Assembly: GCA_029851415.1 (NCBI GenBank)
Contig: CM056741.1
Location: forward strand, 88,137,282-88,201,281
Source: Eretmocerus hayati
Taxonomy: Eukaryota; Arthropoda; Insecta; Hymenoptera; Aphelinidae
Reading direction: 5' to 3'
Length of the DNA: 64,000 nt
Shown here: in pieces, positions 25,080-64,000 of the stretch
How positions within the stretch are numbered: position 1 is the first letter of the stretch
How the letters are laid out: every line of letters begins with the position of its first letter
Notes under the pieces: model-generated
Told to the model about the DNA's origin: nothing
What the model saw: the letters and a program-made list of their open reading frames with translations, nothing else
Databases searched by the model: none
Made by a program: the position numbers and the translations under genes

Positions 25080-25194
25080 GTTGGCGATTAGTTTTTGTTC
25101 ACTGACCTCAAATTATGGATGTACCGATTATGAATACACATTCAATAAAAGTGAGACTTCAGTTGTTTTCTCACAACGTAAATGGGAGGATGTC

Positions 25195-25288
25195 ATGCAT
25201 AGACTTGCAGGTACAGGATTGATCAATTCGACGATCAACAATCTTCCGTTCGAACTACACATACCAGGTAACTATTGAGATATACGCG

Positions 25289-25319
<31 letters not shown>

Positions 25320-25985
25320 ATTTGATTTGATTAACTGATATAAATAGCCCAATTTTTTTTCTTGAAGGGTATCGATATTGCGGTCCAGGAACCCATCTAA
25401 AGAAGAGGTTATCTCGTGGTGACCCATTCGAAGAACCCATTGGACAAGCTTTGCCAACAACACGATATATTATATTCCAAACACAGGGATTTGGAGCATC
25501 GACACGCAGCGGATCTTGTACTACAAAGAGGTGCTGAAAAACGTGCAAAACAAGCCCCATTCGTGGAATCATTGGCAGCCAGGAGCGTGGCTGCTGCTAT
25601 GCGTGTGAAGCGCAAGTTTAGGATGGGTCTCAGAAAAAGACCCCGGAAAAGTCCCAAAAAGAAGAAGAATCAGAAGTTGGATCTGCGCACCCTCGCCCTT
25701 GCCGAAAGGGGTGGTTTCATCCCTGCAATCTTGCCCACATTGGCGGCACTTGGTGCGTTGGGAACCCTGGCTGGAGGTGTTGCCAACGTGGCAAAATCTG
25801 TGAGTACGATCCGGGCCAACAAAAAGACACTGGCCGAACTGAAGAGACATAATCTGGCATTGGAGGGTAAGAGGGGGTCCCGGTCTGGACTTTGGCTGTA
25901 TCCACCCTGTTTGCGCGGGAGTGGGCTGAAAAGATATGAAAAAAAAATTTGGGCGAAAAAGGAGATGAGGAGGAGGAGGTCAAGG
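25195..25985 (+). pseudogene. Virion core protein with parvovirus-type phospholipase A2 domain
   Basis: A first exon (likely ATG at 25195) ends at 25267. A 100-bp GT-AG intron (25268-25367) containing a TA microsatellite follows. The next exon carries the calcium-loop motif YCGPGT, and further on the catalytic His-Asp motif LDKLCQQHDILY. These are hallmarks of the PLA2 domain in parvovirus VP1, which helps incoming virions breach endosomal membranes. A one-base frame change between 25412 and 25430 separates the two motifs, so the copy is broken. The downstream part is basic (KRKFRMGLRKRPRKSPKKKK), then a hydrophobic Ala/Gly/Leu stretch, then a coiled, Lys-rich tail, resembling minor core proteins of adeno-like viruses. 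The frame runs on without a stop into the protease; in related elements I would expect two genes. The PLA2 call is strong, the core role inferred. Confidence 0.72.
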
Positions 25986-26009
25986 TTGAAAGGAACAGGG
26001 GCGCAATTG

Positions 26010-26339
26010 CAGACTGCTGCCAGGAATATTCCGTATTTCCGAGGGGTGTACTCGTTGCAAAGTCTTCCATCACTCCCTAGCTGGCCGATAGAGGGAGCTA
26101 TCGTCAATATTGGTAACGCCCATTGGACCTGTTATCTAAAAATTGGTGGAAGGATCAAATTTTTCATTTCCATGGGCAACATCCCACTTCCAGTTGAACT
26201 CGTGTCTTATTGGAGGAGAGGTTGTCCAAACTGTGTTATAACATACAACAGATCATCCCAGCAAAATTACCGTCAGACCAATTGCGGGCCTTTGTGTGTC
26301 GAATTCCTTAAAGACCATATAAAAGGAGTGTCATCATAG
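26010..26339 (+). pseudogene. Adenain-like cysteine protease (C5-type), probably inactive
   Basis: About 105 residues follow the core protein in the same open frame, ending at the TAG at 26337-26339. The pattern fits maturation proteases of adenoviruses and Polinton-type elements: a His in GNAHWTC, then a Gly-rich turn ISMGNIPLP, then Gln and Cys in QTNCGPLCVEFL. The enzyme family uses a Cys-His pair with an acidic residue, which should lie in the turn. Here that position (codon near 26167) is Ile. Loss of the acidic residue plus fusion to the upstream core protein suggest relaxed selection, although Cys and His remain. It would normally cleave capsid and core precursors during virion maturation. 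Confidence 0.7.
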
Positions 26340-26354
26340 AAACAGAAAATAGTG

Positions 26355-27164: not shown

Positions 27165-27337
27165 TAGAGTCGTTCACAGGCCCTCTGGTCATTCGAGTGA
27201 GTTTCAAGTCACGCGAGTGCCTATCAAGAGTGCAAGACCCGCATCTAACAAGACTTCAAGCCGAGCCCCCCCCCCCCCCCCCCCGATTCAACGAAGCATC
27301 CGTTTCCTACGATCACTTGGATTTCAAGTCAAAAAAT

Positions 27338-28529
27338 ATGGCAGACCATGATATTTTGGATATCTTGAGCCCGATAGAGAAGGACGAGAGCATCATCAAG
27401 AAAATTGTACGTAAAAACGTCCCTTTTAATTTCTCAAGTGTGGAGAGGAATGATGAAATTGGGATCACGGTTTCTCCAAACGATATCTTTCTAAATGTGA
27501 GTGAAAGTTATTTATACGTGGAGGGCAAAGTGACGTTCAACAAAGACACAACAATTATACTTACAAACAATTTTGTGCCCTTCATGTTTGACGAAATACG
27601 TTTGGAAATAAATGGAGTGATTGTAGATCAAATCAAAAATCCAGGAATCACATCAACTCTGGAAAATTACGTCTCTCTTTCCGATGCTCAAGGAAAATCG
27701 ATGAGTGGAAGCAACTTCCATATAGGGGATTGTAATCTCACTAATTCGGAAACATTCAATATTGCAATCCCTTTGTGTAAACTCTTGGGATTTTGCGAAT
27801 ATTACAAAGAAGTCAAGTTTATTACGGGCAAAATCGGATACAAACTGTGTGATTGTGACTAGCGACGAGTGTAACCCAGTGATTACCATAACGGGAATGA
27901 GTTGGCATGTGCCCCATATGTTCCCTCCAGACTTGATTCGCTTGAAAGTGTTAAAGATTTTGGAATCGGGCAAGACAATAATGATGCCCTTTTGCAGTTT
28001 GGATCTGGTGGAATATCCCACCCTTCCAAGTAATACCTCTCAACTTACATGGCCAATCAAGAGTACAAGCGAACTTGAAAAACCACGATTCATAATTTTG
28101 GCATTCCAGACAAACAGAAGAAATAACAAGAAAATCTCGAGTGTGAAGTTTGATCACTGCAAGTTTAATGACGTGAGATTATTTCTAAATTCCGGAGCAT
28201 ATCCCTATGAAAATTTAAACATTGATTTTGATCACTCGAAAAATACATCTGTGTTGTATCACATGTTTGGAAATTTCAGAAAAAGTTATTACAATTCAAA
28301 CGAAGCTAACTCAATCATAAGTAAAGTTGATTTCGAGACATTTTATCCGATGGTGGTTTTGGATGTGTCGCATCAAGACGAAGCTGTGAAATCGTCCGTT
28401 GTTGACATACGCCTCGAACTGCAGTTCAAGCAAAATATCCCCCCCAATACTTCAGCATACGTGATTGTCATACATGACAAGATAATTGCCTATTCCCTAT
28501 TAACCAATACGTTTACGAAATTGATATGA
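27338..28529 (+). pseudogene. Major-capsid-like protein (one frameshift)
   Basis: ATG at 27338 follows a C homopolymer at about 27268-27284. The product is about 390 residues over two frames, with the shift between roughly 27810 and 27862. Segments such as MFDEIRLEINGVIVDQIKNP, LTWPIKSTSELEKPRFIILA and SSVVDIRLELQFKQNIP are clearly homologous to the V2 protein at 62990-64000. Beta-rich character, length and position between penton-like protein and integrase suit a double-jelly-roll capsid protein, but the fold is inferred. About eight residues near the frameshift are also missing relative to V2. An AATAAA-type signal is not obvious immediately downstream; the next gene begins 48 bp later. Confidence 0.68.
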
Positions 28530-28576
28530 GTCAATAACAGGATGGAGAGCGGACAAAATCGGAGAAAGAGGCCAGG

Positions 28577-29130
28577 ATGCCAATGGGCCCGAACTACATC
28601 TTTGTGGATCTGCAGGGTTTCTTGATTGGTGTTGGGACCACTTTCATCCCGAAAGAAATTGCTCTGATCAATATGGAGATGAAGGACGTTAATGAGGAGT
28701 ACGAGATGTTGCACTATCTCGTCAGACCTCCATTCCCTGCAAAAAACTTGGATAAAGTGGAACGTGAAAGTGTGGATTACGGCCTCAATATATCATGGGA
28801 AAATGAATCAATTCCCTTTGAAAATAAGATGGATCCTTTGGAACAAGAGCTCGAAAATGCGAGGAGTATTTTTAGAATGAATATCGTATACGTGATTACT
28901 CATAAAAAAAATTGTACTTGGAAAGTTTATTGCCTAAGATATTTAAGGAAGATAGAATCTTTTGGGTCAAAAACATTTACGATGATTAGAATAGTAGCAA
29001 TACCCTTGAGTATCTATACGGAGATTATCCGTATACTTTCTGTAAGTTCCACAATAACCTTATGTTTAGATGTGCTCGTCATAACACCGAGTATATGTAT
29101 GGTCTTGTGAAAAATGAGATGAGAAAATAA
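28577..29130 (+). pseudogene. Conserved unknown virus-element protein (VDLQG protein)
   Basis: Starts at ATG 28577 and opens with YIFVDLQGF, which matches FYLDIQGY in V2. Later segments in a shifted frame match V2 as well, notably the end region CKFHNN...RCARHNTEYMY, where V2 has CEFHDN...RCAKRTVQYMY. The frame shifts around 28915-28925, and further changes follow before the TAA at 29128-29130. The conserved N-terminal Asp next to a strand, and the C-terminal Cys-x-x-His plus Cys, hint at a nucleic-acid enzyme or zinc-binding protein, but no function is established. An AATAAA signal overlaps the stop region (29125-29130). Confidence 0.6.
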
Positions 29131-29231
29131 AGTTAATGATCAATATCTCTTGTGTATTCATTTTTTTTCCTCGATCCCATCACGATATACCTAAGGAATA
29201 ATGCATAGTCAACGTCAGTTGTGAGTCGGAA

Positions 29232-30205
29232 ATGTCGAGATACAGATAAGTTTTCAGTAAACAAAAGGAACGCATAGTGCGTGAATTACATGCTCAAGCG
29301 AGAAGAAATTATCCTAGGAGACGAACAATAGTGAGAGACATAGACGATCTCTGGCAAGCGGATCTCATGGTAGGAATCTCGCATGCAAAAGTGAATGGAA
29401 ACCATAAATATATCCTAACAGTTATAGACGTATTTTTGAAATATGCATGGGGCGTTCCTCCAAAATCCAAAAGCGGAGCTGATGTAACAAATGGACTTCG
29501 TTCAATCTCGGAAAAAGAAGGCCGAGCCCCAAAAAACTTGCAGACAGACAATGGAAAGGAATTCTACAACTCCCAGTTTGCTCGTTCAATGAAGGAAAAG
29601 AGCATAAACCACTATTCAACATTTAGTCACATGAAGGCGGCTGTGGTGGAGAGGCTGAATAGAACAATCAAGGGTATGCTCCACTCTCCTTTTTTTCATT
29701 GAGTGGTAGCTACAAATGGGTCGACATTATTGATGACACGATGAAATCGTACAATCTCAAGAAACATCACACGATAGGAATGGCTCTAGCAAAAGTATGG
29801 CTCAAGTCCAAGCAGCAGCCTGTGATTGAATCGGGTCTCCTGTCTACGGTATATGCACCTCGAGAACCTAGGAAAACCAGGCCAAAATTCAAAACTGGAG
29901 ATCATGTGCGTATTTCACGATACAAAACAGTATTTTCGAGAGGTTACACGGCAAACTGGGGTACCGAAATGTTTAGAATTACAAGGGTTAACCATCACGA
30001 ATGGCTAGTGACATATCATATCAAGGACTCGGATGACAAACCCATTTCTGGGTGTTTCTATGAACAAGAGATGTCAAAGGTACGGGATCCTGGAGTCTAT
30101 CTGGTCGAACGAGTTCTGAAGAAGCGTCAAAATAGGATGTATATTAAGTGGTTGGGGCTCCCAGCGTCTATGAATAGCTGGATTGAAAATAAGGATGTAC
30201 TATGA
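29232..30205 (+). pseudogene. Retrovirus-like DDE integrase with chromodomain (broken)
   Basis: From ATG 29232 a stop occurs at codon 6; the frame then runs to a T7 run at 29690-29696, where it shifts, and continues to 30205. The catalytic triad is visible: Asp in LWQADLM, Asp in LQTDNGKEF and Glu in AAVVERLNRT. The end carries a chromodomain, with VYLVERVLKKR and IKWLGLPASMNSW as its core. Polinton-type integrases insert the element into host DNA, and the chromodomain may direct it to histone marks. V2 has the same architecture. A polyadenylation signal AATAAA follows near 30218. It converges on the ribonucleotide reductase gene. Confidence 0.78.
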
Positions 30206-30444
30206 TGATGGATGAACAATAAAGCATTTGATATTCGTCACAACAATGGTTTTCATTGCGTACACCTGAGATATTTAATGATACATAGCGGTAAGATTGA
30301 GATATCGGTGATTTATGGAAAACTCCAAGGTTGATCTCATCTGTAAGAGAAAGAGGATGTGCAATCATGAGAGAAGAAAGAATGTGAAATCGAGATTGCG
30401 AAAGATTGGTTGAGGCTTACCTTGTGGAGATTATCGCGTGGAGG

Positions 30445-31435
30445 TACTCAGAAATTCTCATCGACGGAAAATTTTCCACCACTTTCCATCACCCCAAATT
30501 TCTGGTACTCGCTGACTTTCTTCCCGAAAAAATTAGTTTTTCCACTCATATCAATGAGTGACATGAAGTCAAAGGGGTTGTCTGAATTATAGACGTTAGG
30601 ACAGCCGAGCTCACGGCTCACGTAGTAATCGATCGGCAACGAATTCAATGTACTGGCACATTAAATCAGTGTTCATTCCAATCATGCGGACTGGTAGAGA
30701 GCCACGCAAAAACGATTTTTCAATGGACACTGCATCGGTAATAATTTCTCGTACACGATCTTGCGGTGGTTTGTTGATCATGTAAGAGAACAAGAGGCAG
30801 GCAAAATCAACGTGAAGCCCTTCATCACGCGAAATAAGTTCGTTGGAAAAAGTAAGGCCGGGCATCAAACCTCGTTTTTTCAACCAAAATATTGCGGCAA
30901 AGCTACCGCTGAAAAGTATGCCCTCTACCGCTGCAAAGGCAACGAGTCTTTCGGCAAACGACACACTTTTGTGGCCAATCCATCGTATTGCCCAGTCAGC
31001 TTTTTGTTTGACGCATGGCAGAGTCTGAATCGCGTGGAATAGCTGATTTTTCCTGTGGGGGTCTTGGATATACGTGTCGATGAGTAGGGAATACATCTCG
31101 GAGTGTATGTTCTCGATTGCAATCTGGAATCCGTAAAAACATCTGGCTTCAGCAACCTGTACTTCTTGACTAAAGTTCTGGACGAGGTTCTCATCAGCTA
31201 TTCTATCAGATGAAGCAGAAAATGCCAATATATGACAAATAAACTCCTTCTCATCGTCGTTAAGTTTGGCTCAATCACTCGCGTCTTTGGATAAGTCTAC
31301 TTCCTCGGTAGTCCAAAAAGATGCCTCGGCTTTCTTGTAAAATTCCCAAATTTTGGGCCATTCTATGGGAAAGAGAACGAATCTTGGTTGTGCAAGTCAT
31401 AATTTTCATAGATTTTCTTAATTTCAAGAGTCATA
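30445..31435 (-). pseudogene. Ribonucleotide reductase small subunit (R2), intronless, broken
   Basis: Reading on the minus strand from a possible ATG at 31435, R2 homology starts with RFVLFPIEW and ends with FSVDENF, the R1-docking tail type. All diiron ligands and the radical Tyr are present: [24 protein letters not shown] and RDEGLH contain the equivalents of mouse D139, E170, H173, Y177, E233, E267 and H270. Lesions are a TGG-to-TGA-like stop at 31271-31273, a frame change near 31395 and a 7-bp tandem duplication GCTCACG at 30609-30622. R2 makes deoxynucleotides for DNA synthesis together with R1. It is convergent with the integrase, as in V2, so it is probably a virus cargo gene rather than a host retrocopy. 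Confidence 0.85.
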
Positions 31436-31439
31436 TATT

Positions 31440-37500: not shown

Positions 37501-37785
37501 AAATTCAAGGCCTATTAGTGCTTCAAGTTCCGAACCCAATGATATTTCCGCTCTAACACCTGGCCATTTTCTCATTGGGGCTCCTCTAGTAACTCCTCCT
37601 GAGCCATTCACTGAGATTAACAAGGAGAACTCTATATGTACAGGTTGGCGTATACTGCAGCTGGTGCGGAATCACTTCTGGCAGAGGTGGAGGCGCGAGT
37701 ACCTCTCGCAATTACAGGAACGGGCCAAGTGGTTGAAGCCAAATTATCAACAGTAGATCTTGTGATGAGAATCAAGACAATATAT
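34514..37785 (+). pseudogene. BEL1 Pol remnant (RT, RNase H, integrase), 3'-truncated
   Basis: Homology is scattered over several frames: a linker (34514-34861), then RT. The RT core has lost about 130 residues before TASAPF near 35300; the YVDD motif survives at about 35393. RNase H follows at 35684-36208 (LHGFCDASEQ, CWSDSK), then a zinc-binding region and integrase at 36980-37756 with HCGVDFAG, MHSDNA and FEGLWES carrying the DDE residues. Sequence similarity stops near 37785 inside the integrase C-terminal region and no 3' LTR follows, so this copy is truncated and dead. It lies directly after V1. Confidence 0.8.
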
Positions 37786-49181: not shown

Positions 49182-50285
49182 TTACTCAGAATCATTTTCT
49201 TCAGCTGGATCTTGTACGCCGTCAACGTCCTCACGTTCTTCGGGCTCGGTGAGCAATTTGATGGGCTTGCAAAGAGCTCGAGTGCAGGTGGAATTGGCTG
49301 TCTGTAGGTCGACTACTCGAACTAGTCCATCACTCCCAGGATGCAGTGCAGTGACCTGAGCCAAAGGCCATTTGGTTGGTGGTGTTAGTTCATCCTTGAT
49401 GAGCACGACGTCGTCCACTCTCAACGGCTCGGTAGTGTTGTGCCATTTTGCTCGTTTTTGGTAATGGTGGAGTACCTCTTCCTTCCATCCGTCCCAGAAG
49501 TTGTTCCTCATCATTTGGATTTGGTTCCATCTAGAGACAACAGAACGTGTACGATCAGTGTTGTCAAATGGCTCTGGGATAGCAGACATTGAACGACCAG
49601 TAATTAAATGTACCGGAGTAAGCGCAACGAGGTCAGCGCTATCCGTACTGAGAAGACAGACGGGTCTAGAGTTCAAACAAGCTTCTATCTGAGACGTGAG
49701 GGTGGAAAATTTTCCATAAGTCAAAATTGAGTCTCCCGCAACTCGCTCCAAGTGATATTTGAAGCTTTTCACTGCAGCTTCCCAGATTCTGCCAAAATGA
49801 GGCGCGCGAGGGGGAGAAAAATGCCAAGTTACTTCTCCTTTCGCTAACAATGCAGCTATTTCATTCGAGAAACATGACGTTTTCCGGAAAAGTTGTTTGA
49901 GTTCTCTACTAGCACCAGTAAAATTTGTAGCATTGTCACAGTGCACATCCGAGCACCGACCTCGTCTTGAGATGAACCGTCGAAATGCAGCGAGAAAGGC
50001 TAAGGCAGTAAGGTCTGTGATCACTTCAGTGTGGATAGCTCTAGTGTACATACAAATAAATATGGCAAAATAGCCTTTAATGGATCTTGCACCCCGAGCA
50101 CGCGAGAATAGCACTGAAATAGGTCCGGCAAAATCAATTTCAACAGCCTCGAATGTCATTCTAGGTTCAAGTCTGACAGCTGGAAGAGGTGCCATTTGTT
50201 GAACTAATGGTCTGTCCGCGAAACGTGCACAGTCCACACACTTGCGTGTGACACCCTGAACTAGCCGAACAACTGCGGAATCCAC
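49182..50285 (-). pseudogene. BEL2 integrase
   Basis: A 367-codon frame gives an intact integrase core: D51 in VEIDFAGP, D117 in HCDNATNFTG and E169 in FGRIWEAA. It is preceded by CVDC of the zinc-binding region and followed by the basic C-terminal region (KRAKWHNTTEP, DDVVLIKDE). It overlaps the preceding RNase H-side frame by 25 bp out of frame, so it has lost its connection to the polyprotein. It would insert the cDNA into host DNA. Confidence 0.85.
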
Positions 50286-52102
50286 GCCCAGCGAAGAAGG
50301 TGACTCAACATGAGCTGATTGTTACCATGAAGTAAGTTTCTGTGAAGTTCTTGGACAAGTCTACGTACGATGACTGAATTGTTTTGTAAGATGATCGGAT
50401 GAATCTCATTGTATGATAACGATGAATTTTGCAACCGGCCTCCCACCCGAAGAAGTCCTTGTGGGCAGAAAAATGTGACGAGACGTCGAAAATAACTGGA
50501 TGAAGGCAGTTTACCTTGAGTTTCCATGAATCGGATTCCTTTTGCAAAATGATACCTTTGAATAGCCTTGAAGATTGCATTCTTTGCCGCAAGTAACTCT
50601 GGTCACGTGAGATAACCGTTTGTGCGTTTGTGACGGGCAAGTGAAGCGTTGATTTTCCATCTGAAAATATATGCAACAATTCGGTTGATTTTTGAAAAAG
50701 ACGAGAATTTCTCAAGTGTCTCAAGTACAAACGAGTTTTTCTGATCTTCAAACACAGCGTGAACGCGGACCTCCAAGACTCGATCTGGGTCGATGTTGTT
50801 TTGCGATGGCCATAGGGACTCTTCCGCCGTAATCCATTGGGGGCCGTGCCACCAAAGACTCGAATTTTTCAAATCCTCGACCGTCTGTCCCCGAGTTGCG
50901 AGGTCAGCTGGATTTTCATTCGTAAGACCATATTGCTGGAGGTAGAGACGTTTGAATCTCGCTAACCCTATTGGCTACAAAAGTTACCCAGCGTATCGGT
51001 TCACCCGCCAGCCAATCGAGAGTTGTTTTTGAATCTGACCAACAAAAAATCCTTGTTGCTTGATTTTGGAGCTGTCGATGTACATGATTAACCAAGCGCA
51101 CTGATAAAATGGCTGCATATAGCTCCAATCGTGGTACGCATAATGTCTTCGTGGGAGCAACGCGATTTTTTGATATCAATAAAACTGACGAGTGACCTGG
51201 AATGACGAGGTAAACCGCAGCGGCGTAAGCTGCGCTTGACGCATCGGCAAACCCGTGTAACACCCGATTTGTGTCCGAACTTGTTTGTAGCCATCGAGGT
51301 ATTCTAATCGAATTCAAGCTTGGAATCTGCTCACGAAGTGCAAGCCATTCCTCGAGCAATTTACCGTCAAGTGGTTTATCCCAGTCGATTTTAGCTAACC
51401 AAAATTTCTGAAGGAGAATTTCACACTGGACTAAGAAAGGCGTGAGCCAGCCAAGCAGATCAAATAACCGTGAAACTCCAGAGAGAACAATTCGCTTCGT
51501 TGCGCATGTTGATTCAGCAGGCATGTCTACTTTGAAAAAGAACTCATCCGAGATTGTGGACCATTTTAATCCTAAAGTTGACACGACATCTTCAATGTTT
51601 ACCGAAACCTCAGACTCAGCTTCCGTGTTCAGTCCTTGTAATAACTCAGCACTATTCGCAGCCCATTTTCTAAGTGGAATGAGTGCACGTTGTAATGTAG
51701 CAATCAGTTCATCACGAGAATCGATGGCAATTTTCAGGGTATCTCCCCCTCCAAAAATATCGTCGACGTAGCTCAACAAAAGCAGATTTTTGCGGAAAAT
51801 GGAAATTCTTCGCCATACTTCTCGGCTAGATAAATCAAAACTCTGAGTGCGAGAAATGGCGCACAAGCAGTTCCATATGTTATGGTGAGCAAGTTGAAAT
51901 CGAGAATTCTTGAGGAACGATTATCTCTCCACACGATCCGTTGCCAGTCACAATCGTCCGGATGAATCAATACTTGCCGAAACATTTTAACGATATCGGT
52001 GACGAATACGAACTTGAAAAATCTCCAGCGCATAATGATGTGGGTGATATCCTTTTGGGCCAGGGAGCAAAAAATCATTGATACAATATCCATCACCTCC
52101 AT
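50261..52102 (-). pseudogene. BEL2 reverse transcriptase and RNase H
   Basis: Three frames cover this part. 52102-51773 has DIVKMFRQVLIHP and ITYGTACAPF of the RT palm. 51866-50916 has YVDDIFGGGDT, the catalytic motif, then VLHGFADASSAAYAAAVYL and FCWSDSKTTLDWLAG of RNase H. 50872-50261 has the region before the integrase zinc finger. Frame changes lie near 51800 and 50900. The enzyme would copy the element RNA to DNA in the cytoplasmic particle. Confidence 0.84.
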
Positions 52103-54500: not shown

Positions 54501-55615
54501 GATTTTGAGTTTGGAAATGAAAACAAGCCAAAAACAACTCCACAATTGAACACAATAAAACTTAGAATCACGTACCCAAGGTGCACGTAAAATTCCAAAA
54601 AATTGACTAGATTGAATAGGATTGTGATAGGACAAGGACAAGGCACAAGGCACAAGCAAGGGTATTCCAGGAAACAAGGACAGATAGCACAAGTGATCAC
54701 ATGTACATATAGTTAGCCACGTACACGAGGGAGCACTAGATCAGCTGAGCGTGACTCGCTGATTGAATATTACTGCTTGCAAGTATAATGCTCGACCATA
54801 CGAGCATACCGCAGCAGCCGAGTCTGTCCACGCGACGCAACAAGAGCGAGAAAGACAGCGCTAAAAACAGCTGATCAAGTATCGCGAGTATTGGAGTTAA
54901 TAGACTCGGTGAGCGAGCCACGCAGCGAGGGACGGTAGCACACACATAGCGTGCATGAATGTGTAGTATGCAACAACTATAGTTGCCTCTAGTGGGCAGC
55001 GGATGGGGCGGGTGGGAGGGGAACAACGCGAGAGCGCGCAATTTCGCGCCTCGCACAAGATTTGACTTCAAATGGTGTGAGTGTATGTACTATATATAAG
55101 GAACGATACAGCACTCACCCACCGCGGCTGGATTGCTGCAGCTTCCCCTCTCCTCCTTTGCCCTCCTCGCTGCTTCCAAGGATTCCGGAAGGTGCTCGAC
55201 GTCGCTGAGGCAGGACGCCGAGACGACAGCAACGTTGACCCGAAGCGCTGATGATGATGCACTCGGGTACGGGTCACTGCACGCTGCGACCGATGACTGT
55301 CGCAGGGCTGCTGCCTCCTTCCTGTCAAGCCTCGCCTCCTGGCGAGGTGGTCCGCTGCGTCGACGATCGCCTCTGCGCCGGTGCCTGGGCCACCTCAGAG
55401 AGGCCCCGGTGCTGGTGCACGGGTGTTGAATAAGCACGAGTGTGCGGTGCGATTATTGTTGCGACCACACTAGCATACAGCACTGCACTATAAAATGAGC
55501 CCGCGACACTCTCGAGTTTTTCCGCGCGCGCGCAACAGTTTGCGATTCTCGCACGCGACTCGATTTTCGCGAGAACTAAAAAATGGCACGATTTCAACCA
55601 CGCTCTGCTACCAAA
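54501..55615 (-). other. BEL2 leader and primer-binding region
   Basis: Directly after the 5' LTR the minus strand reads TTTTGGTAGCAGAGCGTGG, the type of primer-binding site found next to insect BEL LTRs. The rest of the 1.1-kb leader has no Gag homology. A GC-rich stretch at about 55120-55440 with overlapping frames may be an older insertion. Confidence 0.7.
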
Positions 55616-56780
55616 ATGTTGGGGCGAGGTGTTCTGACGGAACCTCGGAGCCCATTCGAGTGTGGAGAAATCGTGGGAAAAAGAAGAGGGTTCACAAATA
55701 ACACTCACGAGATATAGAGCAGTGTTGGCTCAGTCGGTAGCGTGCTAGCTTCGGAATCAACACTGCTCGAGGGGTCGTGGGTTCGATTCTCGGCGAAATC
55801 ACTCGGAAATTTTTTCTGAGGTTTTTTCGACGGGAAAAGGAGTCATCACACCCCGCCTGCTTTGGAATGGCGTTTTCCCCGGGATTAACCTTCAGAGGAA
55901 TCCTGGGTTCTCCCATTTCACGAGGTCCGACTAGCGGGCCTTGGGCGAATGCGAAGCAGGGGGAGGGTGGGTAACGTACGTGGGTAACGACGTGCCTTCC
56001 TAAGTGCACGGGGAGGTGCGGAGAATGTCGGCCTTACCGGCATTGGAGTTTGAGTCTCACCAAATCATGGCCTTGCAAACCATGAAGAGGCTCTCTCCGG
56101 GAACGCTAAGGGTACAGCGGATCCGATGGCTCACTTTGTAAGACAGGGAATGTCGGCCTTACCGGCATTGGAGAGAGGCATCCCATGGCTGCAAACCATG
56201 GCGTAGGTCACTTCGGGGAAGCTGGAATCCACAAGTGGAGGAAAAATTCGGGCATAACCCTTCACACCGAGGTGGTAAAGGGGCCCCCCGTGCTAGGCCC
56301 AGGGGGCTGCACGGTGATCTCGGAAAAAAAACACTCTCTAGATATAATGAGAGAAAAGTATCACTATATTCTAAAAAATAGGTGTAAGAACAGAGGGTAA
56401 AAAAGATGAGAATCGCGGAGAATCGCTTGCGCGGCGCGGGGGAAAAGGAAGAGAGAGAGAAAGTATCGCAAATTAGAGAAAAACTACTTGTCGCGGGCGG
56501 GCACCGATGCGAGATAGGTACTCGGGCGCGACGAAGCTAGAGCTGCACACCTTGCAAGCTCCACGGACCGATGGCTAACTAACGCGAACCGAGCAATGAG
56601 CAAAGCTTGACGTGAGAATCCTCGGTCGTTGTTCTGGTCAGCCGATGCAATTTTGGCCAATGAGGTGACAACCATCAATCATGCGAGAGTAGGGAGAGTG
56701 AAGACAACGACCGAGCATTTGACATCGAGCAGGCTCCAATATATAGGCATGAAGTTTAGATGCTCGCGCGCACCCGAACA
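55616..56780 (-). repeat. BEL2 5' LTR, interrupted by a SINE
   Basis: Runs from ATGTTGGGGCGAG (inner edge, next to the primer-binding region) to CGAACA (outer edge), where the satellite resumes with CGGAT. A minus-strand CTATATATTGG near 56740 is a plausible promoter TATA box. The LTR sequence is interrupted between 55717 and 56330 by a tRNA-derived SINE. Both LTR parts match the split 3' LTR closely. Confidence 0.87.
55717..56330 (+). mobile_element. tRNA-derived SINE inserted in the BEL2 5' LTR
   Basis: The head has pol III boxes TTGGCTCAGTCGGTAG (A) and GGGTTCGATTCTC (B) and a tRNA-like layout. The body is about 500 bp, contains GAATGTCGGCCTTACCGGC twice and CATGGxxxGCAAACCATG-like inverted words, and ends in a run of A. 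Flanks ACACTCACGAGATATA and ACACTCTCTAGATATA (55701-55716 and 56331-56346) are a 16-bp target duplication with two changes. The matching LTR copy at about 17385 lacks the insert. Transposition would need LINE-encoded enzymes. Confidence 0.82.
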
Positions 56781-57785
56781 CGGATCCACCCGGATGAGTG
56801 GCAATGACATCGGCTACGGTCAGATACGAATACACGGATGGGCACGGGTGCACGGGTCAACACGAATACGAAGTCACCCGGATGCATAGAACGGACATAC
56901 ACGGATACCAACAGATCGGCACGGATGCGGATTCACACGTATGACTGGTAATGTCATCGTCTACGGGTGGATACGGGTACACGGACGGCCACGGGTAGGA
57001 AGACGACAGTCCCCCAAAACGGATAGGCACGGATGCACGGGTCGACACGGATACGGAGTCACCCGGATGCCTACAACGGACAGACACGGATACCCAAGGA
57101 TCGGTACGGATACGATTTCACACGTATAACCCTCGATGACATCAGCTACGGGTGGATACGGGTACACGGATCGCCACGGATAAAACGACGACCAACGGAT
57201 CGGCACGGATGAGAGAGTCACACGGATGATGTGACCATAACAACATAAAACGGATCGGCACGGATGAGAGAGTCACACGGATGATGTGACCATAACAACA
57301 TAAAACGGATAGACACGGATTCCCAACGCATAGGCACGGGTGCACGGGTCAACAAGGATCTGGAGTCACCCGGATGCATGATACGGACAGACACCGTACC
57401 CACGGATCGGCATGGATACGGATTCATACGTATGACTGGCAATGATGTCGGCTACGGGTGGATGAGGGGTACACGGACGGCCACGAGTATAACGATGACG
57501 GTCTCTCAAAACGGGTAGACGGGGATGCGCAACGGATAGGTACGGATACGGATTCACACGGATGAGTGGCAATGACATGGCTACGGTCCGGATACGGGTA
57601 CACGGATAGCCACGGTTAAGACCACGACAGTCCCTCAAATCGGATAGGCGCGCGTGCACGGGTCAACACGGAGCCGGAGTCACCCGGATGCATAAAACGG
57701 ACCGACACGGATACCCACGGATCGGCGGGGATACGGAGTCACACGGATGGGTGTGCCATAGCAACATGGAACGGATAGACACGGA
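56781..57785 (+). repeat. ACGGAT/ACGGGT satellite, right continuation
   Basis: Same word families and same orientation as 13591-17291, starting immediately at the BEL2 boundary with CGGATCCACCCGG. It holds a perfect local duplication of an ATCGGCACGGATGAGAGAG-containing unit near 57200 and 57256. It ends near 57785 in unrelated sequence. Confidence 0.88.
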
Positions 57786-58286
57786 AGTAGAGGTGCTACA
57801 CGAAGATCCAACAATTTTAAATTTAATTGGACACTTTGTCCATTTAAAATACATGGGGAAGCCGTCTGAGCGAAAAGCATCGGAGGTATATGAAAATCGC
57901 ACGTTGAAAATGCTCTGTCTCCCACAGCCCCCTTTTACAGTATGCTCAGCAGGTCATGGTGCAACACCATGCTCTGCAGACCACGGTGCATCCAGCACAT
58001 GTATGCTCTGCATACCACGGTGCTACCTGTATCCAGCGCATAAGGCTATGTCAATATATGTCGGGCAGACCGAGGCTTGAATATCCGTGGCTATACAGCC
58101 GTTTGAGGATTCTACAATTCATTGCCGTCATTGTCCCCCACAACGAGTTTGCTGCCGCCCTCCTCCTCCTCATCGCAGCAAGTCATCGTTCTTACGTGTA
58201 TCCGCCGCCACCGTTGCCCTCGTCCTCGCAACAAGTTCTCGCTCCCACATATAGCCACCGTTGCCCGCATCACCAAACCCTCTCTC

Positions 58287-58341
<55 letters not shown>

Positions 58342-58652
58342 CTCTCTCTTTCAATATTCACTCTATCACCAAGATGAGTTCTCTTCACCTCTTTCGCTCA
58401 CTCTTGCTCTACCCGAGACTGCTAACATTCATTCCGTTAGAATGGAACTTTAAATGTATAGGAAGTATTATACTTTAAACTACACCAATACCTCTCTCGC
58501 TCACTCTTTCTGTGCCGAGACAGTTAACATTCATGCTGTTAGAATGGAACTTTGAATGTATAGGACGTATCATACTTTAAACTACACCATCCCTATGATA
58601 TCTTATATGGAAGACGAATGCAACTCCTTCTCCTCTACAGGGGGAAAACCAT
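57786..58652. other. Low-complexity spacer before V2
   Basis: Contains short repeats of ATGCTCTGCA and CCACGGTGC (57940-58030), a CT microsatellite at 58279-58345, and a tandem duplication of about 100 bp holding GTTAGAATGGAACTTT (near 58436 and 58538) and ACTTTAAACTACACCA. A frame at 57688-58080 starts in satellite and shows no domain. The left end of V2 is probably here but no terminal repeat is visible. Confidence 0.5.
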
Positions 58653-59969
58653 ATGTTGAAAATTCCTTTGTGGAGTATTCAGTCGTCTAACAGATCTCTG
58701 TTCATTCGCTGTGCTCTCTCTCTCTATCTCTCCTTGTGTATCATGTCTGCAATCAAAATGATTCGTGTGTGTTCTATCACGGTGTTGACCATGTACTATT
58801 GTTACTTATATCATGGTCAGTCAATAATTCAACTGTTTGCCAAGAAAGAAGAACCTGTGGAAGTGAAAGTTAATTCCACTTGGTTCTATCTACAGTGTAC
58901 ATGCACACTGATTGTGGTTCTAAGTTTTACAATGTGTTTGAAGAATATAGTTGAAAAACGGAAGAAACTCGAGATAAAGAAGGGACTCATGCTTCTTCAA
59001 GAAAAAATGATTAAGTATGATGCAGCATTAGAGAGTGATGCATCGCTCAAGGACTTGGAACATGAGGAACCTCTGTTGGTAGCAAATCATGATAGATTTG
59101 TGCTGTTCCCAATTAAATGGTCTTTCATCTGGCGACTCTACAAAAAAGCAGAGGGATCCTTCTGGGCTGCTGAGGCGGTGGATGTTTCCAAGGATCTATC
59201 TGATTGGAATCAATTGAATGAGAGTGAAAGAAACATCATTTCTCATGTTCTCGCGTTTTTTACCGCCTCAAATACTACATTGAACAAAGATTTAATTCTG
59301 AACTTATGTAAGAAAGTTCGGATCCCAGAAGCGAGGTCCTTCTACGGCTTTCAAATAGCCATGGAGAATATCCATCATGAGATGTACGCACGGCTTCTGG
59401 ATACATATGTCACTGATGACATATACAGAGAATTCCTCCTCAACACGTCACGTATACAGAAGTGTATATCGATGAAGATGGAATGGAGTTTAAAGTGGAT
59501 TAACAACTGTTCAACGTCGTTTGCTGAGAGGTTGGTAGCATTAATAGCTCTCAAAGAACTCTTCTTCAGCAGCAGTTTTGCAGTAATTTCCTGGTTCGAG
59601 CATAGAAATCTCCTACCAGGTCTTTCATATGCAAATAGACTCATTTACAGAGATCATGACTTACATAGTCATTTTTCATGCGTACTTCTCAAGAGTCTTG
59701 AAAGGAAACCATCGGAAGCGAAAGTTAAAGAAATTATCATGAGTGCTGTGGATGTGGAGAAGAAATTCATCCATGAGTTTCTTTCGCTAACATCAGTTGG
59801 AATGGATAGAACTCTAATGAATCAACATGTTGAATATGTTGCTGACTGGTTACTAATAAATTTGGGGAATATGCCAGCCTTCGGTGGTGGAAACCGTCTT
59901 CCATTCGTCAAAAAGGTTTCCTTCAAAGGAAAAAGGCCATACATTCAACATAACGGTATCAGAGAATAA
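58653..59969 (+). CDS. R2-like ribonucleotide reductase homologue, metal ligands lost, N-terminal membrane segments
   Basis: An unbroken 438-codon frame; Met31 (58743) is an alternative start. Residues 38-53 and 77-96 are hydrophobic and look like two membrane segments, followed by a Lys-rich linker. R2 homology runs from about residue 147 to 405. D177, E238, H241, Y245 and H338 match ligand or radical positions, but the equivalents of mouse E233 and E267 are K301 and H335, so a diiron site should not form. The C-terminal R1-docking tail is replaced by a short basic end (KGKRPYIQHNGIRE). Known precedent for a ligand-poor R2 partner is yeast Rnr4. A structural, regulatory or decoy role, membrane-bound, is inferred. 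The open frame despite lost ligands suggests selection. It has the same place and orientation as the V1 R2. Confidence 0.85.
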   Translation: MLKIPLWSIQSSNRSLFIRCALSLYLSLCIMSAIKMIRVCSITVLTMYYCYLYHGQSIIQLFAKKEEPVEVKVNSTWFYLQCTCTLIVVLSFTMCLKNIVEKRKKLEIKKGLMLLQEKMIKYDAALESDASLKDLEHEEPLLVANHDRFVLFPIKWSFIWRLYKKAEGSFWAAEAVDVSKDLSDWNQLNESERNIISHVLAFFTASNTTLNKDLILNLCKKVRIPEARSFYGFQIAMENIHHEMYARLLDTYVTDDIYREFLLNTSRIQKCISMKMEWSLKWINNCSTSFAERLVALIALKELFFSSSFAVISWFEHRNLLPGLSYANRLIYRDHDLHSHFSCVLLKSLERKPSEAKVKEIIMSAVDVEKKFIHEFLSLTSVGMDRTLMNQHVEYVADWLLINLGNMPAFGGGNRLPFVKKVSFKGKRPYIQHNGIRE

Positions 59970-60097
59970 GGGGTGGAAATCCAGTGGAGGGTCCACAAAG
60001 TTTACCATCGACTCGGACTTTAAAAAAAAAAAAAACTTAAAACAAAAGAAAAAAAATTACTGCTCATGCTTTAAGTATAAGAAGAGAGGGGGAACAG

Positions 60098-60105
60098 TAT
60101 ATAAG
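60098..60105 (+). promoter_or_regulatory. TATA box for the short V2 gene
   Basis: TATATAAG lies 42 bp before the ATG at 60140, a normal spacing for a short leader of roughly 10 to 15 bases. The preceding sequence is purine-rich (60060-60092). Confidence 0.55.
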
Positions 60106-60139
60106 TTAGCATCGACACATATAAAGCGTTAGTTCAACA

Positions 60140-60570
60140 ATGTTCTCAATAGGAAGAGACGGTGAGTGTTACTTAAAAAAGATTTAATCTCTCTCTTTCT
60201 CTCTCTTTAATAAAATTTCCTCTTCTTTCTAGGGCAACTAGAAGTAATCAACGCGCTCATAAATTATGAGCGAGATTACGTTTACGGTGATTCATTTATC
60301 CACTACTGTATAGCATATCAACATTTAAACGTCTCACACAGATTTTCAATTGTGTTTGAGCTAACTGGCGGACATTCAATTCTATCAGTCTTCACTTACC
60401 ACAGACTTGACGATGGAATTTTTGAGATTGATGAGAACACAAATGGCTATAATAGATGCTTACCAAAAACGTACTACAAAATTGGGAACATTAAAGAAAT
60501 TGCTGGTTTTATCTGGCATTGCAGACACCACCTCTCAAACATTCAAGTGGTTGATTTGAAAAGGAGGTAA
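60140..60570 (+). CDS. Short spliced V2 accessory protein, unknown
   Basis: Exon 1 is 60140-60161, encoding seven codons plus one base. A 71-bp intron (60162-60232) starts GTGAGT and ends in a strong pyrimidine tract and TAG. Exon 2 runs from 60233 to the TAA at 60568-60570. The product is about 119 residues, with EVINALINYERDYVYGDSF near the start and FELTGGHSILSVFTYHRL in the middle. I recognise no family. The last codons (AAAAGGAG|GTAAGT) could also be a donor site leading to a further exon. A TATA box precedes it. It lies between the R2-like gene and the integrase of V2; V1 has no counterpart in its shorter gap. Confidence 0.55.
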
Positions 60571-60671
60571 GTTGAATAAATGATGTTTTCATTCCTCAAT
60601 GGTGAGTGCGGCGAATGATATTAAATATTTCCATTCAGTCATTCTAGGTTACAGATTCAACCAGGAAGATA

Positions 60672-60743
60672 GTTGGAATAGCTCAGTGGGAGAGTGTATG
60701 ACTGAAGATCGCAATGTTCTCGCTTCGATCCAGAGTTCCAACA
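60672..60743 (+). tRNA. tRNA-Phe(GAA)-like sequence, degenerate
   Basis: A 72-nt cloverleaf-like sequence with a 7-bp acceptor stem (GTTGGAA with TTCCAAC), D arm TAGCTCAGTGGGAGAG and anticodon loop CTGAAGA with GAA at 60704-60706. The anticodon stem has one A-C mismatch and the T stem (CTCGC with CAGAG) pairs badly. It is probably a pseudogene or SINE head derived from tRNA-Phe rather than a working tRNA. Confidence 0.5.
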
Positions 60744-60786
60744 ATCGTCGAATCAGTTCCGCAAATAAGCTATGAGGTTCACCAAA

Positions 60787-60858
60787 GCCGAAATAGCTCA
60801 GTTGGTAGAGCTTATGACTATAATGATGCGGTCCTCAGTTCGAGTCCGAGTTTCGGCG
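60787..60858 (+). tRNA. tRNA-Phe-derived sequence with altered anticodon arm
   Basis: The acceptor stem (GCCGAAA with TTTCGGC) and D arm (TAGCTCAGTTGGTAGAGC) are of tRNA-Phe type and the T arm pairs with one mismatch. The anticodon position reads ATA and its stem does not close properly. It is followed by T-rich sequence that could end pol III transcription. It is the second tRNA-like copy within 120 bp, both in V2. Confidence 0.45.
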
Positions 60859-61057
60859 AAAATTTTTTCTTTCTTTAAAAAATTTTTTGATTTTTTTCTT
60901 CAATTTTTCTATTTCTTTCATTTTTTTGAAAAATTTTTCCCCTTCCCTCCTTAATATCTGTTACGAGTGAAAATATGTGAGGTACGTTTGAATGAATAAA
61001 AAATGCTGTCATTCATTTTTTAAAAAAAGTGTAATTTTCTTTTATTTCTCAAACAAT

Positions 61058-62019
61058 TCATAAAAATGATTTCTGATCTATCCAACTATTCATGGATGAA
61101 GGTAGCCCCCACCATTTAACCAAGGATTTTCCAGCTTTCCTCCTTAATATTTTTCCACTAAATAGACATTGGGATCATGCACCTTGGATAATTCTTGTGA
61201 GTAAAATTGACCTGATATTGGATCATCTTTATCATCCACCAGATGATATGTAATGGGCCATGCATTATGATTTACTCGAGCAATTCTGAAAATCTCAGCT
61301 GTCCAGTTGGCTGTATATCCCTTTGAGAAGATGGTTTTATATTTTGATACTCGCACATAATCACCCACTTTGAATTTAGATTCTTTCGAGAGATGTGGTT
61401 CACTAGCATATACAGTTTTCAATAATCTCGATTCAATTTTCGACTGGTTGGTGGATCGTTTCCACACCTGTATAGGTTTCATACCAATAGTTCTATGAAC
61501 ATCATCGTAATTATACTGGTGCACCAAGTCCTGTATAATATCAATCCAACGATAACTCCCTCTGAGTGAAAAGGAACGATATATCTTTCCCTTGATTGTT
61601 CTTATGAAACGTTCAACAATTGATGCCTTACAAACTGAGTACGAGGAATAATGATTGATATTCCGATCTTTCATCAGCTGTGAAAATTTAGAGTTGTAAA
61701 ATTCAGTGCCTTGATCACTCTGTAAGTTTTTTGGCTTCCTATGCTCCCTATCCAAGATCGATTTAAACGCTTCAGTGACGTGTGAGGCTTGTTTTATCTT
61801 GATTGCAATGCACCATGCATACTTGGAAAATACGTCTACCACAGCGAGTATATACTTATAATTTTTGTTAACTTTTGCATAATTGATCATAACTACAATA
61901 TCAATCTGCCAAGTGTCATCAATCCCTCGCACATCTACTCTCCGACGAAGGGAATTCTTCCTCGCTGGAGCATGAAGCTCCTTAACCAACTGTCTTTTTT
62001 GTAAACTGTATTGATCCAT
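61058..62019 (-). pseudogene. V2 integrase with chromodomain (single frameshift)
   Basis: A 291-codon frame starts MDQYSLQKRQLVKELH. The triad is D40 in DTWQIDIV, D102 in LQSDQGTEF and E136 in KASIVERFIR. The C-terminal SH3-like part includes VSKYKTIFSKGYTANW. The frame stops at 61144 right after VYLVEK, where a run of five A (61150-61154 on the minus strand) is one base short. The other frame then continues with chromodomain sequence (VKWWGLPSSMNSW) to a stop at 61058-61060. The single homopolymer lesion could be a real mutation, a sequencing error or frameshifting. Enzymatic core residues are complete. AATAAA follows at about 61045 on the minus strand. Confidence 0.8.
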
Positions 62020-62194
62020 ATTTGTATAGAGGTATGTATACTACCATCTCACTCATTTAACTGAGCTCAACGTCCAACAAGATAGTTACTTATACCATAT
62101 TGTAGTGAGAAATAGGGATGTAGAGGAGGGGGAGGGGGTAGGGTTTAATTAAAAGAATAAAAGTCAGATTTTCATTGTATACAATTTTTTTCAT

Positions 62195-62908
62195 TTATAT
62201 ATAATCGAATTGTGATTCAGGTATATTGATAATGCTTCTGTAATGTTTCAAATATGATTCTTTTTCGAGATGATACATGTATTGCACTGTTCGCTTAGCA
62301 CATCTATATTTTGAATTATCGTGGAATTCACATGGTGTATAGTTAAATTTCTCAGTAAAGTATCCATCCTGGTTAACGCGACAAGTTTGAAAGATGTTTT
62401 TCATCCAATATCTCGAATGTTTCCGGGAAAGATGAGGTAGTTGTCTGCTCAACCATCTTTTTTTTACATCACTCCCAAAATAAATAATATCCATGCGAAA
62501 ATGTGAACGCGAATATTCAAGCTCATACAGTAGAGGTGCTAGCATCTCACTCCACGGTACAGAGCCTGCAGATCATGGAATGTTGTGAACATAAGTTCGA
62601 TGATGAATCATTTGTCCCACTCCACTAGCTGATGGTGTTCCAATCTCTGGTAGTGGGCCTACTGTATAATGAAGAATCTTGTATGATGTTGGACAACATT
62701 CATACATTTCTCGATTGAGAAGAGCTTTTTCTTTTGGAAAAAAGTCTCGACCAATGGTATAGCCTTGTATATCAAGATAAAATTTATTAGCAGCCATAGG
62801 ACTTGCTGCCTCCATCCGATGTTTGAAATCATCTACGTTTGCAACATTGGACCACCACATCTTTCCAACAGTTGCTATTGTCTCCTGCTCCTCCTTCAAC
62901 AATTGCAT
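62195..62908 (-). pseudogene. V2 copy of the conserved unknown protein, one in-frame TGA
   Basis: One continuous frame of about 237 codons on the minus strand, interrupted only by TGA at 62573-62575, where V1 has Trp. The start at 62908 precedes a helical segment; FYLDIQGY, FPKEKALLN and YKILHYTVGP follow. After the stop come ELEYSRSHFRMDIIYFG and the C-terminal CEFHDNSKYRCAKRTVQYMY. Retention of both halves in frame means the lesion is recent, or the stop is suppressed, or it is an error. Function is unknown. The conserved Asp in the N-terminal strand and the Cys/His set are the residues to test. Confidence 0.6.
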
Positions 62909-62989
62909 TCTCCTTCTCTCAAAGCAATTGTTCCTATCAAATTCCCTCTCAAATTGCTCCCACTCCTCCCGTGAAGGCTTGATCAGAAA

Positions 62990-64000
62990 TCAAATCATCT
63001 TCTGAACAATATTTGTCAGTGGGTTGTACTTGACGAGTTTATCATGAATTATGAGACAGTAGGCTGTTGTATCTTTTGGAATATTTTCTTTGAACTCGAG
63101 TTCAACTCGAACATCCACTACTGATGATTTCACCGAATCAGCTGACTCACTAACATCAAACACGAGAATCGGGAATGAATCCTCAAAATTTTGTTTACTA
63201 ATTGAAACATTGCCTTTATCAGCGTGATAATAACTCTTCCTAAAAGCCTTAAACATTTCAAATAAGACAGAAGTATTCTGAGCCATGGCAAAGTCGATGT
63301 GAAGATGTTCATAAGGATATGCTTCAGAATTGAGGAAGATTTTTGCATTAACAATCTTGCAGTGATCAAATTTTGACATGTCCTTCTCCTTGCTGTTATT
63401 CCTAGCGGTCTGGAAGGCAATAATGATGTACCGAGGTTTCTCCAGCTGAGTTGTGCTCTTAATAGGCCATATTAATTGAGAGGTTTCGGGCATTGTTGGA
63501 AGTTCACAGAGATCCCAGCTTCGGTATGATAGGAACAAAGGAGTGTTTCTTTCAAGAATTTTGAGTAGGCGAAGACGTATCAAATCGTTTGGATATATAT
63601 GAGTCATGTGTAAAGTTACAGCAGTCAGATTGATTTGTGGAGCGCACTCTTCACTCGTTGTTATCACACAATTGTTTTCATTTCTTGATCTGAGCAATAC
63701 TATATCATGTTTTGCAAATGCTATAACCCGTCTAAAGTCTCCACAAAAACCAAATATTTTACTGAGTGGAATAGCAAAGTTGAATCCGTGACCTGAGCTT
63801 ATAGTGTAGTTTCCTATATGATGTCCTGCATTAGTCATAGACTTATCTTCATCCGCAGGAAGTGGAACAAGATTTTTCAGACCAACAGTGATACCAGGAT
63901 TTTTTGTTTCATCAATAATCACGTTGTTGATCTCATAGCGAATCATGTCAAAGAGGAAAAGTAGGAAATCACTTATCAACAGAATACTTTGCTCCTTATC
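62990..64000 (-). CDS. V2 major-capsid-like protein (5' end beyond window)
   Basis: Open from the window edge to the stop at 62990-62992 without interruption, at least 336 codons. Matching segments with V1 include NPGIT, LIWPIKSTTQLEKPRYIIIA, AYPYEHLHIDF, SSVVDVRVELEFKENIP and the end YNPLTNIVQKMI. Reading continues upstream of the internal Met at 63979 with residues that match V1, so the true start lies outside. Intact here while V1 is broken, so V2 is the younger or better conserved copy. The capsid role is inferred from length, beta-rich pattern and gene order. Confidence 0.7.
   Translation of the reverse strand, partial: DKEQSILLISDFLLFLFDMIRYEINNVIIDETKNPGITVGLKNLVPLPADEDKSMTNAGHHIGNYTISSGHGFNFAIPLSKIFGFCGDFRRVIAFAKHDIVLLRSRNENNCVITTSEECAPQINLTAVTLHMTHIYPNDLIRLRLLKILERNTPLFLSYRSWDLCELPTMPETSQLIWPIKSTTQLEKPRYIIIAFQTARNNSKEKDMSKFDHCKIVNAKIFLNSEAYPYEHLHIDFAMAQNTSVLFEMFKAFRKSYYHADKGNVSISKQNFEDSFPILVFDVSESADSVKSSVVDVRVELEFKENIPKDTTAYCLIIHDKLVKYNPLTNIVQKMI

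What the first reader, a model, noticed from the sequence alone, without database searches (positions are those of the whole stretch)
58653..59969. Full-length R2-like protein without two metal ligands, without docking tail, with two N-terminal hydrophobic segments
The frame has no lesions over 438 codons although the equivalents of E233 and E267 are Lys and His and the R1-binding tail is gone. D177, E238, H241, Y245 and H338 remain. A dead enzyme kept open argues for a new role, and the predicted membrane anchor is unusual for an otherwise soluble enzyme family. It parallels yeast Rnr4 in losing ligands but goes further in architecture.
Basis: partly seen in the sequence, partly recalled or inferred. 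Interest (0 to 1): 0.9.

Follow-up and report, generated by a model that had tools for sequence, protein, structure and literature searches.

The report
Dead R2 gene of endogenous Polinton-like virus
The odd ribonucleotide-reductase-like gene is most likely cargo of a virus-like mobile element sitting in an animal genome, not a host gene with a new job; it has lost half of its metal-binding residues, and its docking tail is still there but out of frame.

Summary
The 438-codon frame at 58653-59969 is real and encodes an R2 fold, but three parts of the reading change. (1) Metal site: the equivalent of mouse ligand D139 is N207, not D177, so three of six ligands are lost (N207, K301, H335); all 96 relatives aligned keep all six. 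(2) The R1-docking tail is not gone: "...KFTIDSDF" lies directly downstream in the +1 frame. (3) It is probably no host duplicate: the window holds a second R2 with all six ligands, itself broken, at 30451-31434 (-), and both R2s sit convergently beside the integrase of a Polinton-like element, in the order DJR capsid, gene X, integrase, R2. The element copy beside this gene has few lesions, so the open frame needs no host function; by the same logic the ligand loss probably predates insertion, and the changes are milder than neutral. Best reading: an endogenous virus-like element's R2 pseudoenzyme, perhaps Rnr4-like, since broken at its tail. The membrane anchor is unproven. R2 in a virophage-like element has a precedent (EMALE07). 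The own-genome search did not complete.

The parts
58653..59969 (+). R2-like pseudoenzyme frame (P0001, 438 aa); R2 core from about residue 139
58653..58943 (+). N-terminal stretch with hydrophobic segments (residues 1-97); no relative found; start codon uncertain (M1, M31, M94)
59271..59273 (+). N207, equivalent of metal ligand D139 of mouse R2 (lost)
59553..59555 (+). K301, equivalent of ligand E233 (lost)
59655..59657 (+). H335, equivalent of ligand E267 (lost)
59941..60021 (+). R2 C-terminal tail in the +1 frame, ending FTIDSDF (R1-docking motif), out of frame with the body; mouse Y370 place reads Asn
60214..60567 (+). small frame without Pfam match (possibly a second exon, by eye); no counterpart beside copy A
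60672..60743 (+). tRNA-like gene
60787..60858 (+). tRNA-like gene
61147..62040 (-). integrase (rve) of copy B of the Polinton-like element; the stretch aligning to copy A's chromo-like end lies in another frame
62198..62989 (-). gene X of copy B, one in-frame stop at 62573-62575
62993..64000 (-). double jelly-roll capsid-like gene (PF21738) of copy B, running off the window
30451..31434 (-). second R2 of the window (copy A): all six ligands, Y177 and Y370 equivalents and tail KFSVDENF; broken by an in-frame stop, a frame change before the tail and changes near its N-terminus
29250..30202 (+). integrase of copy A (frame change near 29.69 kb) with a chromo-domain match below cut-off
28538..29112 (+). 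gene X of copy A (frame change)
27539..28526 (+). DJR capsid-like gene of copy A (frame change near 27.8 kb)
25401..26336 (+). open frame upstream of copy A's DJR, with a phospholipase-A2-like match below cut-off

Best explanation
The gene is the R2 cargo gene of an endogenous Polinton-/adintovirus-like element (copy B). Shown: the same gene order and relative orientation (DJR, X, integrase, convergent R2) occurs twice in the window, the second time with an R2 that keeps all six ligands but is broken. Inferred: the element's ancestor carried an active host-type R2 to raise dNTP supply. In the lineage that gave copy B, R2 lost three of six metal ligands and the C-terminal tyrosine while the protein was still selected, keeping W103, D266 and Y177 equivalents and an R1-docking tail. 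Such a subunit should not form the di-iron/tyrosyl radical itself; most likely it acted as a partner subunit (like yeast Rnr4 for Rnr2) or a docking decoy on host R1. After insertion the copy began to decay: frame offset before the R2 tail, stop in X, frame change at the integrase end. Confidence by step: element cargo 0.85; catalytically dead 0.9; ligand loss before insertion 0.65; Rnr4-like partner or R1 docking as mechanism 0.35.
For: Synteny of two copies. Traits shared by both R2s and absent from fetched R2s, noticed after comparing the two: Trp after FPI(K/E), 0 of 231 with a readable motif; LEIKK near the N-terminus, 0 of 237; SGG then KF before the tail, 0 of 237. Copy A R2 keeps all six ligands and its longest piece groups with animal R2s (bootstrap/SH-aLRT 93/86, end branch long). 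Ligand loss: N207, K301, H335 against 67 of 67 and 36 of 36 conserved. Selection: 34 of 104 invariant columns changed, but milder than neutral changes (8 and 1 of 2000 simulations as mild, two null settings). Neutral drift of the core to the same retention (67%) leaves no stop in 6 of 1000 runs; that load predicts about 15 stops in 834 codons of integrase, X and DJR of copy B, and one is seen (P about 6e-6; earlier run at 64%). Codon positions differ as in coding sequence: R2 A against B 0.466/0.297/0.653. Fold: human R2 3olj TM 0.93, Rnr4 1sms TM 0.83, normalised by target.
Against: P0001 is no closer to copy A (95 of 219, 43%) than to animal R2s in general (mean 43%), and its tree position is unresolved (end branch 10; clades with insects, fungi or the Bacteroidia-like group not rejected, p 0.39, 0.43, 0.34), so common descent rests on synteny and three small traits picked after the fact. 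No terminal repeats were recognised (one search showed the 25 longest of 116 inverted pairs; copy B runs off the window). No polymerase gene was seen among the frames scanned. R1 docking and partner function are untested. The R2-to-integrase gap in copy B holds a small frame and two tRNA-like genes that copy A lacks. The simulations assume one transition bias and equal stop risk per codon.
Confidence: 0.65

Rival explanations
1. A host (arthropod-like) R2 duplicate that became a membrane-anchored pseudoenzyme with a new cellular role; the element lies beside it by chance.
For: Open body frame, hydrophobic N-terminus open beyond chance (11 of 5000), changes milder than neutral; an insect clade is not rejected by the tree test (p 0.39).
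Against: A second R2 lies in the same convergent place beside a second copy of the element and shares three rare traits with this one. Mean identity to animal R2s (43%, 37 rows) is not above that to fungal (45%, 14 rows) or Bacteroidia-like R2s (47%, 12 rows, two of them named). No relative above 50% identity among the 120 listed of 4674 hits.
Confidence: 0.12
2. Plain decay: R2 of a dying element drifting neutrally; the ligand changes and open frame are accidents of a young pseudogene.
For: Frame offset before the tail, stop in X, frame change at the integrase end; in copy A the DJR, X, integrase and R2 frames are broken.
Against: The amount of change at invariant sites would bring about 5 stops in the R2 core and about 15 in the neighbours; 0 and 1 are seen. 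Changes are milder than neutral.
Confidence: 0.2
3. The frame offset before the tail is a sequencing or assembly error, and the gene today encodes a ligand-less R2 with a docking tail. (Compatible with the element origin.)
For: The tail is well preserved out of frame although the core is only about half identical to its relatives; the core has no stop.
Against: The tail's frame has no stop at the expected place (next at 60132), and copy B carries two other lesions in neighbouring genes. No reads were available.
Confidence: 0.3

Closest known systems
Class Ia eukaryotic R2 (RRM2/p53R2/Rnr2, PF00268)
   Same: Fold, core, radical tyrosine, W103 and D266 equivalents, three ligands; tail motif present out of frame
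   Different: Three of six ligands lost, C-terminal tyrosine place reads Asn, tail out of frame, extra N-terminus
Yeast Rnr4 (partner subunit of Rnr2)
   Same: Also has three iron-coordinating residues changed; fast-evolving (PMC2704937, passages); fold match 1sms and 1jk0_B
   Different: Host gene paired with Rnr2; which three residues differ was not compared here
Apicomplexan R2_e2 clade (PMC3824934, section 17)
   Same: Diverged second eukaryotic R2 without the C-terminal tyrosine
   Different: Keeps the metal ligands with few exceptions and an in-frame conserved tail; protist gene
EMALE07 virophage-like element of Cafeteria (PMC8547959, one passage)
   Same: R2 gene carried by a virophage-like integrating element
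   Different: Protist host; no sequence compared; the passage says nothing on ligands
Betaherpesvirus RNR homologues (PMC11772975, start of abstract in the listing)
   Same: Viral RNR homologue that lost enzyme activity and has another role
   Different: Herpesviruses; for M45 an R1 homologue (recalled)

Membership tests
Class Ia R2 (PF00268) | R2 domain by profile and fold | tested here: met
   PF00268 E 3.4e-83; 3olj TM 0.93 normalised by target
Class Ia R2 (PF00268) | Six metal ligands D,E,H,E,E,H | tested here: not met
   N207, E238, H241, K301, H335, H338; 67 of 67 and 36 of 36 aligned relatives keep all six
Class Ia R2 (PF00268) | Radical tyrosine, W103 and D266 equivalents | tested here: met
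   Y245, W171, D334
Class Ia R2 (PF00268) | C-terminal tyrosine (mouse Y370) and in-frame docking tail | tested here: not met
   Tail in +1 frame, Asn at the tyrosine place
Rnr4-like partner subunit | Loss of the diiron centre together with pairing to an active R2 | not testable with these tools
   Ligand loss seen; pairing untested
Polinton/Maverick or adintovirus-like element | Retrovirus-type integrase | tested here: met
   rve E 7.3e-14; second copy 55-58% identical
Polinton/Maverick or adintovirus-like element | Double jelly-roll capsid protein | tested here: met
   PF21738 E 5.2e-96 (copy B) and 7.3e-22 (copy A piece)
Polinton/Maverick or adintovirus-like element | Protein-primed polymerase B, packaging ATPase, adenovirus-type protease | tested here: inconclusive
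   No such Pfam match among the frames scanned; not all frames were scanned and copy B runs off the window
Polinton/Maverick or adintovirus-like element | Terminal inverted repeats and target-site duplication | tested here: inconclusive
   None recognised in 18400-33000 or 54700-64000 (the first a short list, the second its 25 longest of 116); other end of copy B outside the window

The most novel reading that the evidence does not exclude
A family of Polinton-like viruses of an arthropod carries R2, and one lineage turned it into a metal-less viral partner subunit that docks host R1 (a viral counterpart of Rnr4), possibly membrane-anchored, evolved while the virus was active.
Probability: 0.3. 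Interest if true: 0.75.

Novelty: new variant of a known kind. Interest (0 to 1): 0.55.

Why it matters
If right, it links nucleotide-supply genes to animal Polinton-like elements and shows a viral R2 that gave up its own chemistry, which would make it testable whether viruses can steer host ribonucleotide reductase with a dead subunit. It also warns that intact-looking 'pseudoenzymes' beside integrase and capsid genes may be viral cargo. Searches of the held library gave no title or listed abstract on R2 in animal Polinton-like elements; of the 20 papers only two (PMC8547959, PMC5704228) were opened, for passages, so a mention inside another cannot be excluded.

Tried and rejected
Host duplication: examined by trees and identity; not excluded by the trees, disfavoured by synteny. 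Origin from fungal or Bacteroidia-like R2s: identity slightly higher (45% and 47% against 43%) but no clade rejected; in that grouping 14 fungal rows include unnamed ones, only two of the 12 Bacteroidia-like rows bear that name, and the animal rows include one unnamed protein. Splicing to explain the N-terminus: candidate donors and acceptors exist, none compelling. Relatives in viral contigs: P0001, DJR and integrase of copy B gave none; the copy A R2 piece gave 9 loci of 13 stretches, of which L005-L008 were looked at through 10 chosen frames: no Pfam match to an integrase or DJR capsid, but R1, DnaB-type helicase and exonuclease; L001-L004 and L009 were not examined. Viral structure library: best match a baculovirus R2. 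A wasp-virus lead (PMC7728225, passages) mentions only a large subunit. The first codon-position comparison of R2 was out of frame by my mistake and is replaced. The neutral run at 64% counted five columns behind the frame offset; one search repeats it at 67% with a like result.

Full report
OBSERVATION. The frame 58653-59969 (+) is open for 438 codons, matches PF00268 (E 3.4e-83, residues 148-412) and aligns without gaps to mouse R2 over residues 119-432. The fold model (mean pLDDT 80) matches human R2 3olj with TM 0.93 and yeast Rnr4 1sms with TM 0.83, both normalised by the target.

METAL SITE. With the gapless offset of 68, mouse D139, E170, H173, E233, E267, H270 are N207, E238, H241, K301, H335, H338 (the mouse ligand numbers are recalled). 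PMC3824934 (section 17 read) lists the iron-coordinating positions in Rnr2 numbering as 145, 176, 179, 239, 273, 276, whose spacing confirms that the Asp ligand is the one in the motif ASD, not D177. So three of six ligands are lost. All six are kept in 67 of 67 relatives aligned from the 120 listed and in 36 of 36 of a second set, 96 different proteins together. Y245, W171 and D334 (mouse Y177, W103, D266) remain.

TAIL. The +1 frame across the end of the ORF reads TFNITVSENKGWKSSGGSTKFTIDSDF (59941-60021) at the position of the R2 tail. Of 237 fetched R2 proteins, 212 end in this type of motif. A six-frame scan of the window finds four matches to a loose tail pattern, two of them the R2 tails (60001-60021 + and 30451-30471 -), two unrelated; plain shuffles give 0.12 per window, so they understate chance here, but position and flanks fit the R2 tail. 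The tail is therefore present but out of frame with the body, and its frame has no stop until 60132. The C-terminal tyrosine place reads Asn. In frame, the protein ends in eleven unrelated residues.

N-TERMINUS. Hydropathy windows above 1.4 cover about residues 15-48 and 76-101 (peaks 1.98 and 1.86); a window in the R2 core reaches 1.93, so hydropathy alone is weak. The upstream frame is open beyond chance (11 of 5000 shuffles for 97 codons, 2 of those 11 also with two hydrophobic stretches; 1 of 5000 for 117 codons). The segment has no detectable relative and low model confidence. By eye, copy A's R2 aligns to it only from the stretch KN..KR..LEIKK on, and has a stop 19 codons before its ATG. 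A start at M94 would give an ordinary soluble R2 architecture. The anchor is possible but unproven.

SURROUNDINGS. To the right lie, on the minus strand, a retrovirus-type integrase (61147-62040, rve E 7.3e-14), a gene X with one in-frame stop, and a double jelly-roll capsid-like gene (PF21738 E 5.2e-96). A second set lies at 25.4-30.2 kb on the plus strand: a frame with a phospholipase-A2-like match below cut-off (E 0.0033), then DJR, X and integrase, the last three with frame changes. Directly after that integrase, on the opposite strand, is a second R2 (30451-31434), 48% identical over 254 residues, E 6e-79. It keeps all six ligands, the radical tyrosine and the tail tyrosine but has an in-frame stop and frame changes. 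Both R2s are thus convergent with the integrase, about 0.25 and 1.1 kb from its end. Left of the finding are minisatellites and BEL/Pao genes (49185-51920 by Pfam). A polymerase and terminal repeats were not found, so the element is called Polinton-like, not Polinton.

COMMON ORIGIN. Traits shared by both window R2s and absent from fetched R2s, chosen after comparing the two: Trp after FPI(K/E), 0 of 231 with a readable motif; LEIKK near the N-terminus, 0 of 237; SGG then KF at the tail, 0 of 237. Third codon positions differ to the same degree in R2 (0.653), integrase (0.623, 0.625) and DJR (0.655), as expected if they diverged together, although this is near saturation. Copy A's R2 piece is 70% identical on average to the 67 relatives, best 73%. 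P0001 is 43% identical to that piece, no more than to animal R2s in general, and sits on an unresolvable branch.

WHEN WERE THE LIGANDS LOST? 34 of 104 columns invariant in relatives, counted up to the frame offset, are changed in P0001; over the part copy A's piece covers, 27 of 77 against 6 of 77. Neutral drift of the core to the same retention (67%) leaves no stop in 6 of 1000 runs (mean 5.1 stops); at 64%, 2 of 500, at 80%, 23 of 500. If copy B as a whole had drifted so far, integrase, X and DJR (834 codons, X taken as 200) should hold about 15 stops; one is seen. The changes are milder than neutral expectation (mean BLOSUM62 0.35 against -0.28 and -0.53; 8 and 1 of 2000). So the ligands were probably lost while the protein was still selected, in the element's lineage, before this insertion. 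The simulations start from P0001's own codons with one transition bias, so the numbers are rough.

MECHANISM (inferred). With half the ligands and the C-terminal tyrosine gone, the protein should not make or pass on a radical by itself. Fold, radical-pocket tyrosine and a docking motif were retained until recently. The simplest use is that of Rnr4, in which three iron-coordinating residues are changed and which stabilises the diiron centre of Rnr2 in a heterodimer (PMC2704937, passages), or a decoy on R1. A viral RNR homologue without activity but with another role is reported for betaherpesviruses (PMC11772975, start of abstract in the listing). Pairing and docking were not tested.

NOVELTY. 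R2 in a virophage-like integrating element has one precedent seen here, EMALE07 (PMC8547959, one passage). No listing on R2 in animal Polinton-like elements appeared in the held library (two papers opened for passages). The host was not identified; BEL/Pao genes suggest an animal. The own-genome search did not complete (18 tries), which is the main gap.

Noticed in passing
30451-31434 (-): Second R2 gene with all six metal ligands, broken by a stop and frame changes, beside a second copy of the element.
   Followed up: yes
60672-60743 and 60787-60858 (+): Two tRNA-like genes (Rfam tRNA 39.6 and 44.4 bits) between the R2 and the integrase of copy B; Rfam found none beside copy A.
   Followed up: partly
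60141-60567 (+): Small frame without Pfam match, possibly two exons (by eye), directly downstream of the R2; no match beside copy A.
   Followed up: partly
25401-26336 (+): Open frame with a weak phospholipase-A2-like start (E 0.0033); its end looks by eye like an adenovirus-type protease, but no Pfam match supports that.
   Followed up: partly
58387-58589 (+): A 102-base direct repeat, two copies at 88%, just upstream of the finding.
   Followed up: no
49185-51920 (-) and 32862-37753 (+): BEL/Pao-type retrotransposon genes (Peptidase_A17, DUF5641, DUF1759).
   Followed up: partly
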